Below are positions 22,323 to 23,373 of a stretch of DNA of 36,334 bases, in pieces. Each line of letters begins with the position of its first letter. The stretch's first letter is position 1. The notes under the pieces were generated by a model that had not been told where the DNA came from, did not search any database, and was given only the letters and a program-made list of their open reading frames with translations. The position numbers were made by a program, and so were the translations under genes. Origin of the DNA: Treponema sp. (lineage in GTDB: Bacteria; Spirochaetota; Spirochaetia; Treponematales; Breznakiellaceae); NCBI GenBank assembly GCA_031281025.1, contig JAITFY010000051.1, positions 1-36,334 of the forward strand, in the 5' to 3' direction.

Positions 22323-22404
22323 AAATGTTTCACGTGAAACACGTGGTGCCTGGCACCAGCCAGAAATGTTTCACGTGAAACACGTGGTGCCTGGCACCAG
22401 CCAG
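22323..22404. repeat. Two tandem 41-bp units, each parS-like palindrome + GGTGCCTGGCACC palindrome
   Basis: AAATGTTTCACGTGAAACACGTGGTGCCTGGCACCAGCCAG at 22323-22363 and 22364-22404; parS cores 22326-22341 and 22367-22382. Confidence 0.95.
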
Positions 22405-23225
22405 TAGTTCAACTCAGATTGCCTGCCTTTAAGCTTGGAAAGACTTAGTTTCTGGCATTCTGGTTCATCGGGATATGCGTTGAACCGGACTTTCCCATAC
22501 ATTGTGTCATTTCCATCATATTCGTAAATGTAGTAGTCTGCGGTTTTGGTAACGTAATGAAGATAAACTATCGGATTTTGAATGTTATCACTTTCGCCGA
22601 TTTTTGGAATTGCCGGAATAATCCTGCTTAATTTTTCAATTATTTTTGCATACGCTCCAAAATATTTTATAGTATGTTCGAGTTGTTTTGGCGGCAAAAG
22701 TTGCCGCACACTAAGTGGTAAAAGATGAGCAAGCTTATTAACTTTTTGTGGCACTGCAAATGAAAAATCCACAATGTCAGAAATATCGTGCGCTCTATAA
22801 AATGCACCTGATGCTTGCCAATCCTCTGGTTTTTCGACAATCCCTGCCTTCACGGGATTCTGGTCGATATAAGCCATCACATTATCAAACTCTTGTGCGT
22901 CGTTGACAATTCTGGCATAGAATCTATTGCCCCACATATGATCAGTTGAGCCATTAGTAGAATTCCAGCGTTTTGCCGAACGTGTTTTTATCCAATGCAT
23001 TATCACGCTTAAATTTGTTCCTTCTGCAGGTTTTATAAGCAAGTGAATATGTGTTGGCATAATGCAAAAATTGGCAAGTTCGAAAAGGAACTTATCCTTC
23101 GCTTCCTGCAATACCATGAGCATATTTTTCTTGCCAAACTTTGAGTCAAAAACCCTGATTTTATCATTTGTTCTTGATGTGACATGATAAAATGCCCCTT
23201 CGATGAACTCTCTTTTTTTACGCAT
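22371..23225 (-). CDS. REP-associated tyrosine transposase (RAYT, Y1/IS200-like)
   Basis: MPTHIHLLI (HUH motif), MWGNRFYARIV, YIDQNPVKAGIV catalytic Tyr region; C-terminus VPGTTCFT encoded in repeat. Confidence 0.9.
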   Translation of the reverse strand: MRKKREFIEGAFYHVTSRTNDKIRVFDSKFGKKNMLMVLQEAKDKFLFELANFCIMPTHIHLLIKPAEGTNLSVIMHWIKTRSAKRWNSTNGSTDHMWGNRFYARIVNDAQEFDNVMAYIDQNPVKAGIVEKPEDWQASGAFYRAHDISDIVDFSFAVPQKVNKLAHLLPLSVRQLLPPKQLEHTIKYFGAYAKIIEKLSRIIPAIPKIGESDNIQNPIVYLHYVTKTADYYIYEYDGNDTMYGKVRFNAYPDEPECQKLSLSKLKGRQSELNYWLVPGTTCFT

Positions 23226-23318
23226 TCTGTACTCCTATGACACAAACGTGTCATATATATATGGCGTACACATGCGTGGTGCTTGACCGAAAATGAAAAA
23301 AAAGTGAAAAATCGTATC

Positions 23319-23373
23319 GTGCCTGGCACCCTAACCCTCAATGTTTCACGTGAAACACGTGGTGCCTGGCACC
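23319..23373. repeat. GTGCCTGGCAC palindrome (23319-23329) and third parS-like + GGTGCCTGGCACC unit (23342-23373)
   Basis: TGTTTCACGTGAAACA at 23342-23357 followed by CGT and GGTGCCTGGCACC at 23361-23373. Confidence 0.95.

What the first reader, a model, noticed from the sequence alone, without database searches (positions are those of the whole stretch)
22323..23373. Three perfect parS palindromes (TGTTTCACGTGAAACA) carried in a composite repeat that flanks a RAYT transposase
TGTTTCACGTGAAACA at 22326-22341, 22367-22382 and 23342-23357 is identical to the canonical ParB-binding parS 16-mer (established knowledge). Each copy is followed by the same CGT-GGTGCCTGGCACC, giving a conserved 32-bp double palindrome on both sides of a RAYT gene. 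RAYTs are known to be tied to dispersal of REP palindromes. Hypothesis: a REP-like mobile unit that carries, and so can spread, chromosome-partition centromere sites; alternatively, genuine parS sites near gyrA/oriC were overlaid by a REP element. No parAB gene is present in the window.
Basis: partly seen in the sequence, partly recalled or inferred. Interest (0 to 1): 0.82.

Follow-up and report, generated by a model that had tools for sequence, protein, structure and literature searches.

The report
Chromosome-partition sites overlaid by REP element
In an uncultured Treponema-like bacterium, a short repeat-spreading transposon has settled right beside the chromosome's own ParB docking site (parS) and that site now exists in three local copies; the docking site is the normal ancestral one, not a centromere that moves around the genome.

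Summary
In detail: TGTTTCACGTGAAACA lies at 22326, 22367 and 23342, each followed by CGT+GGTGCCTGGCACC. In the held genome (2.35 Mb, 82% complete) the 16-mer occurs only here, while 10 other GGTGCCTGGCACC copies carry no parS. In the same genus, 23 of 36 relatives carry the perfect 16-mer, usually once, typically in the order arfB-parS-META gene-gyrA-recF-dnaN-dnaA, without a RAYT or this REP beside it, 5-17 kb from dnaA in 11 genomes. The genome encodes ParA and a ParB with parS-type specificity residues. The RAYT is a true REP-associated tyrosine transposase; several relatives are flanked by GGTG-N5-CACC palindromes and none has parS within 1.5 kb. The composite was found in no other genome of 397 in the order; a looser pattern hit one of about 85,000 species genomes. 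Best account: a REP/RAYT element inserted beside the ancestral parS, and the merged unit was then duplicated locally, giving a 41-bp tandem pair plus a third copy across the RAYT. The duplication mechanism is inferred.

The parts
22326..22341 (.). parS copy 1, at the ancestral position 20 bp after the arfB stop codon
   Evidence: syntenic with relatives
22345..22357 (+). REP palindrome GGTGCCTGGCACC, 3 bp from parS copy 1
22367..22382 (.). parS copy 2 (second half of the 41-bp tandem duplication; holds the RAYT stop codon at 22371-22373)
22386..22398 (+). REP palindrome at the 3' end of the RAYT gene (encodes the VPGT tail)
22371..23225 (-). RAYT, REP-associated tyrosine transposase, 284 aa; Y1_Tnp domain, HIH motif and YIDQNPVKAG tyrosine motif present
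23318..23330 (+). REP-like CGTGCCTGGCACC (12 of 13) on the 5' side of the RAYT
23342..23357 (.). parS copy 3 (holds the stop codon of gene 23346-24515)
23361..23373 (+). REP palindrome following parS copy 3
23346..24515 (-). gene with weak DNA_alkylation (HEAT-like) similarity; orthologues at other loci in the genus end at DFEL[I/V/M], so the RVPGTTCFT tail comes from the composite
21808..21820 (-). further REP copy upstream of arfB, without parS
21886..22305 (+). arfB (alternative ribosome rescue hydrolase), conserved neighbour of parS in the genus
24528..25016 (-). META-domain gene, conserved neighbour between parS and gyrA
25040..27565 (-). gyrA

Best explanation
The TGTTTCACGTGAAACA sites are genuine chromosomal parS. 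Copy 1 is the genus-wide, origin-proximal parS between arfB and gyrA, where ParB is expected to load and recruit the partition machinery. A REP/RAYT element (REPtron) inserted so that its GGTGCCTGGCACC REP abuts the parS core, leaving the 16-mer intact. The joined parS-REP unit was then duplicated locally, once as a 41-bp tandem repeat (as in REP arrays beside other RAYTs of the genus, with parS caught as the spacer) and once to the far side of the RAYT, perhaps by template switching at the TTGAACTA shared by the RAYT and the neighbouring gene's 3' end. Shown: parS identity and synteny, REP/RAYT identity, absence of the composite elsewhere. Inferred: the order of events, RAYT involvement in the duplication, and ParB binding to all three copies.
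For: Own genome: the 16-mer only at these three sites and nothing better than 2 mismatches elsewhere, whereas GGTGCCTGGCACC has 10 further copies without parS. Same genus: 23 of 36 relatives have the 16-mer, mostly once; it lies within about 60 bp of arfB in 9 genomes, in the order arfB-parS-META-gyrA-recF-dnaN-dnaA, and no RAYT was matched in these loci. dnaA is on the same contig 5-17 kb away in 11 of them. ParA and ParB are encoded; ParB has GKNR and SSGHAR, i.e. the R173 and G201 equivalents that PMC7383237 reports as conserved in ParB, not Noc's Q and R. RAYT relatives carry GGTG-N5-CACC palindromes on their flanks (L077-L080, L098, L099) and no parS, and 9 of 138 relatives end in a VPGT tail. 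L098 shows a REP array of 37-57 bp period. Composite: only this genome of 397.
Against: dnaA is on a different contig in this genome (C3, next to dnaN and recF), so origin proximity of this copy is inferred from relatives only. The assembly is a fragmented, 82% complete metagenome bin, so further composite copies in the missing part, or an assembly error, cannot be excluded. No ParB binding data exist. The full-length RAYTs closest to this one (L071-L075) mostly lack exact GGTG-N5-CACC flanks. The proposed microhomology is short (8-9 bp).
Confidence: 0.87

Rival explanations
1. Mobile centromere: the RAYT recognises the whole parS-REP composite as its mobile unit and spreads parS through the genome.
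For: Three identical composites on both sides of a RAYT; RAYTs are tied to REP dispersal (PMC2817692, PMC3733652).
Against: No composite elsewhere in the genome; 10 REPs lack parS; none of the RAYT homologue loci has parS within 1.5 kb; composite absent from 396 other order genomes and from viral contigs; parS is ancestral at this locus.
Confidence: 0.03
2. The three parS copies are a selected partition cluster: extra parS copies were kept because they strengthen ParB/SMC loading, and the REP/RAYT is a bystander that only supplied repeats.
For: Multiple parS copies within 50-2000 bp occur in other genomes of the order (G053 four in about 430 bp, G044 three, G045, G049, G058 two).
Against: REP and parS parts of the three copies are equally identical, so nothing shows selection on parS alone; most of the genus manages with one perfect site.
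Confidence: 0.25
3. The 16-mer is not a ParB site but simply part of the RAYT element's terminal inverted structure.
For: It is palindromic and sits next to the RAYT; the RAYT stop codon lies in it.
Against: The same 16-mer is at the same locus in RAYT-free relatives; it is identical to the consensus parS used in PMC7383237.
Confidence: 0.02
4. Assembly artefact: a repeat-bearing RAYT contig wrongly joined to the gyrA/parS locus, or wrong tandem copy number.
For: Metagenome bin with 175 contigs; repeats at the junctions; gyrA is separated from dnaA, unlike in relatives.
Against: Repeat units (34-41 bp) are shorter than ordinary short reads; arfB on one side and META and gyrA on the other are in the order seen in relatives.
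Confidence: 0.07

Closest known systems
Chromosomal ParABS parS site (consensus TGTTTCACGTGAAACA)
   Same: Identical 16-mer; origin-proximal in relatives; ParA and ParB encoded in the genome
   Different: Fused at 3 bp distance to a REP and present as three copies around a transposase gene
REPtron / RAYT with flanking REPs (PMC2817692; PMC3733652)
   Same: RAYT by NCBIfam NF047646, palindromic repeats on both sides, dispersed copies of the palindrome elsewhere in the genome
   Different: REP is a 13-bp GGTGCCTGGCACC without a GTAG foot at each copy, low copy number (14), and the repeat unit here includes a parS
Borrelia burgdorferi origin-proximal parS (PMC9712426)
   Same: Spirochaete with an origin-proximal parS bound by ParB
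   Different: No parS-REP fusion seen in the passages read

Membership tests
Chromosomal parS site | Match to the 16-bp consensus TGTTTCACGTGAAACA | tested here: met
Chromosomal parS site | Located near oriC/dnaA | tested here: inconclusive
   5-17 kb from dnaA in 11 same-genus relatives; in this genome dnaA is on another contig
Chromosomal parS site | Cognate ParB with parS-type specificity residues in the genome | tested here: met
   TIGR00180 190 bits; R173/G201 equivalents read from the alignment and sequence
Chromosomal parS site | ParB binds it in vivo or in vitro | not testable with these tools
   needs EMSA or ChIP-seq
RAYT | REP-associated tyrosine transposase profile with HUH and catalytic Tyr motif | tested here: met
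   NF047646 100.9 bits over the cut-off of 80; HIH and YIDQNPVKAG in the sequence
REPtron | RAYT flanked by palindromes of a family dispersed in the genome | tested here: met
   GGTGCCTGGCACC flanks plus 10 copies elsewhere
GTAG-type REP | Conserved GTAG tetranucleotide at the foot of every REP | tested here: not met
   GTAG follows the copies at 22386 and 23361 within a few bases, but not the copies elsewhere in the genome
Mobile parS element | parS-REP composite dispersed at several loci | tested here: not met

The most novel reading that the evidence does not exclude
RAYT activity on REP hairpins can take a neighbouring parS along as array spacer, so that a REPtron multiplies centromere sites locally (one to three here) and changes how ParB loads near the origin.
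Probability: 0.3. Interest if true: 0.55.

Novelty: new variant of a known kind. Interest (0 to 1): 0.33.

Why it matters
It shows that the origin-proximal partition site can tolerate a transposase-linked palindrome three bases away and can be copied together with it. That is a possible natural route by which parS copy number changes, and a caution that a parS embedded in a repeat is not in itself a mobile centromere. A text search for papers naming parS, ParB and repetitive extragenic palindromic sequences together found no report of such a fusion, though that library is partial.

Tried and rejected
L049 (Elusimicrobia): parS-like GTTTTCACGTGAAAAC followed a few bases later by GGTGCCTGGCACC just before parA; that genome holds only 2 copies of the 13-mer, and by my own rough estimate about 2-3 hits to the pattern used are expected by chance in 85,000 genomes, so it is not counted as a second case. 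P0031, a RAYT relative ending in SCFT*, looked as if it might end in a parS, but its close homologues end in PVNFYT and PVNNYA, so the tail is probably native; the DNA could not be seen. A search of viral contigs for the composite and for P0031 relatives found nothing; plasmids hold only distant RAYTs. Rfam found no RNA family in the window. GC skew in the window showed no clear origin-type switch at the locus. Single-strand DNA folding confirms strong hairpins (z -4 to -6.6), which is expected of palindromes and decides nothing.

Full report
Observation. Copies 1 and 2 form a perfect 41-bp tandem repeat, and copy 3 starts 975 bp after copy 2. The gene between copies 2 and 3 is a RAYT (NF047646 over its cut-off; Y1_Tnp in Pfam). 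Both the RAYT and the next gene end in VPGTTCFT*, written by the reverse strand of the composite.

Genome-wide counts. The window is contig C88 of a 2.35-Mb, 175-contig, 82% complete assembly. The 16-mer occurs only at these three places; at up to 3 mismatches the best other site has 2. GGTGCCTGGCACC occurs 14 times, 10 of them on other contigs, and none of those is next to a parS. So the REP is dispersed and the parS is not.

Relatives. RAYT homologues in public data are named Treponema sp., so the organism is taken to be Treponema-like; this is inference. Among 36 same-genus genomes 23 have the 16-mer, mostly one copy. Annotating the surroundings gives a conserved order arfB, parS, META gene, gyrA, recF, dnaN, dnaA. 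In nine genomes parS lies within about 60 bp of the arfB match. No RAYT was matched in these loci and no GTGCCTGGCAC lies in the 20 loci. In 11 same-genus genomes dnaA is on the same contig at roughly 5-17 kb. In the window genome copy 1 is 20 bp after arfB, the ancestral place. Its left flank (AAAATG) resembles relatives, while on the right CGT and the REP follow the 16-mer directly.

Partition machinery. ParB is on C11 next to ParA. It carries the residues equivalent to R173 and G201 that PMC7383237 reports as conserved in ParB and changed in Noc. The consensus parS used in that paper is the same 16-mer.

REP and RAYT. Several genus RAYTs are flanked by palindromes of the form GGTG-N5-CACC, different in each (GGTGACTGACACC, GGTGACAGTCACC, GGTGTCAATCACC and so on), and none has a parS within 1.5 kb. 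L098 carries an array of such REPs with 37-57 bp period. In 9 of 138 related RAYT proteins, the query included, VPGT occurs near the C-terminus, as expected if a GGTGCC-type REP overlaps the gene's end. The window genome's second, partial RAYT (C158, 79% identical) also runs into CACCTGGC-type repeats. A REP at the end of the RAYT is therefore ordinary; the parS beyond it is the local peculiarity.

Origin of the copies (inference). Homologues of gene 23346-24515 (82-87% identical) sit at other loci and end at DFEL followed by one or a few residues and a stop. In the window the homology stops at the edge of the composite. The 3' ends of this gene and of the RAYT share TTGAACTA(C) beside the composite, which suggests template switching or recombination there. 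All copies are identical, so the event is probably recent. Whether the RAYT protein took part is not shown.

Distribution. The composite was found in no other genome of 397 in the order, nor was any GGTG-N5-CACC within 30 bp of a perfect parS in that sample. G017, not in that sample, has GGTGTCAGTCACC about 14 bp from its parS. One of about 85,000 species genomes gave a looser hit (L049).

Verdict. A genuine parS locus overlaid by a REP/RAYT element with local duplication. The mobile-centromere idea is not supported.

Noticed in passing
L098:455-2288; L080:1383-2087; L078:1440-2020; window 22345-23373: Within one genus, several RAYTs are flanked by their own version of a GGTG-N5-CACC palindrome, suggesting transposase-REP co-evolution.
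   Followed up: partly
window 25040-36334; L145 (contig C3): gyrA is separated from recF/dnaN/dnaA, which are close to it in relatives: a rearrangement or assembly break in this genome.
   Followed up: partly
L049:632-670: Elusimicrobia genome with a parS-like palindrome followed by GGTGCCTGGCACC immediately upstream of parA.
   Followed up: partly
L038:160-192: Genome G017 has a different REP-like palindrome (GGTGTCAGTCACC) about 14 bp from one of its two parS sites.
   Followed up: partly
L006, L014: Short-period arrays of CACCTGGCACCT extending from single REPs in the same genome.
   Followed up: no
L037, L021, L038, L041: In four same-genus genomes a parS lies at a second recurring place, after a similar stretch reading GG(A/C)ACTATxGG..CTGTT, not beside arfB/gyrA.
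   Followed up: no
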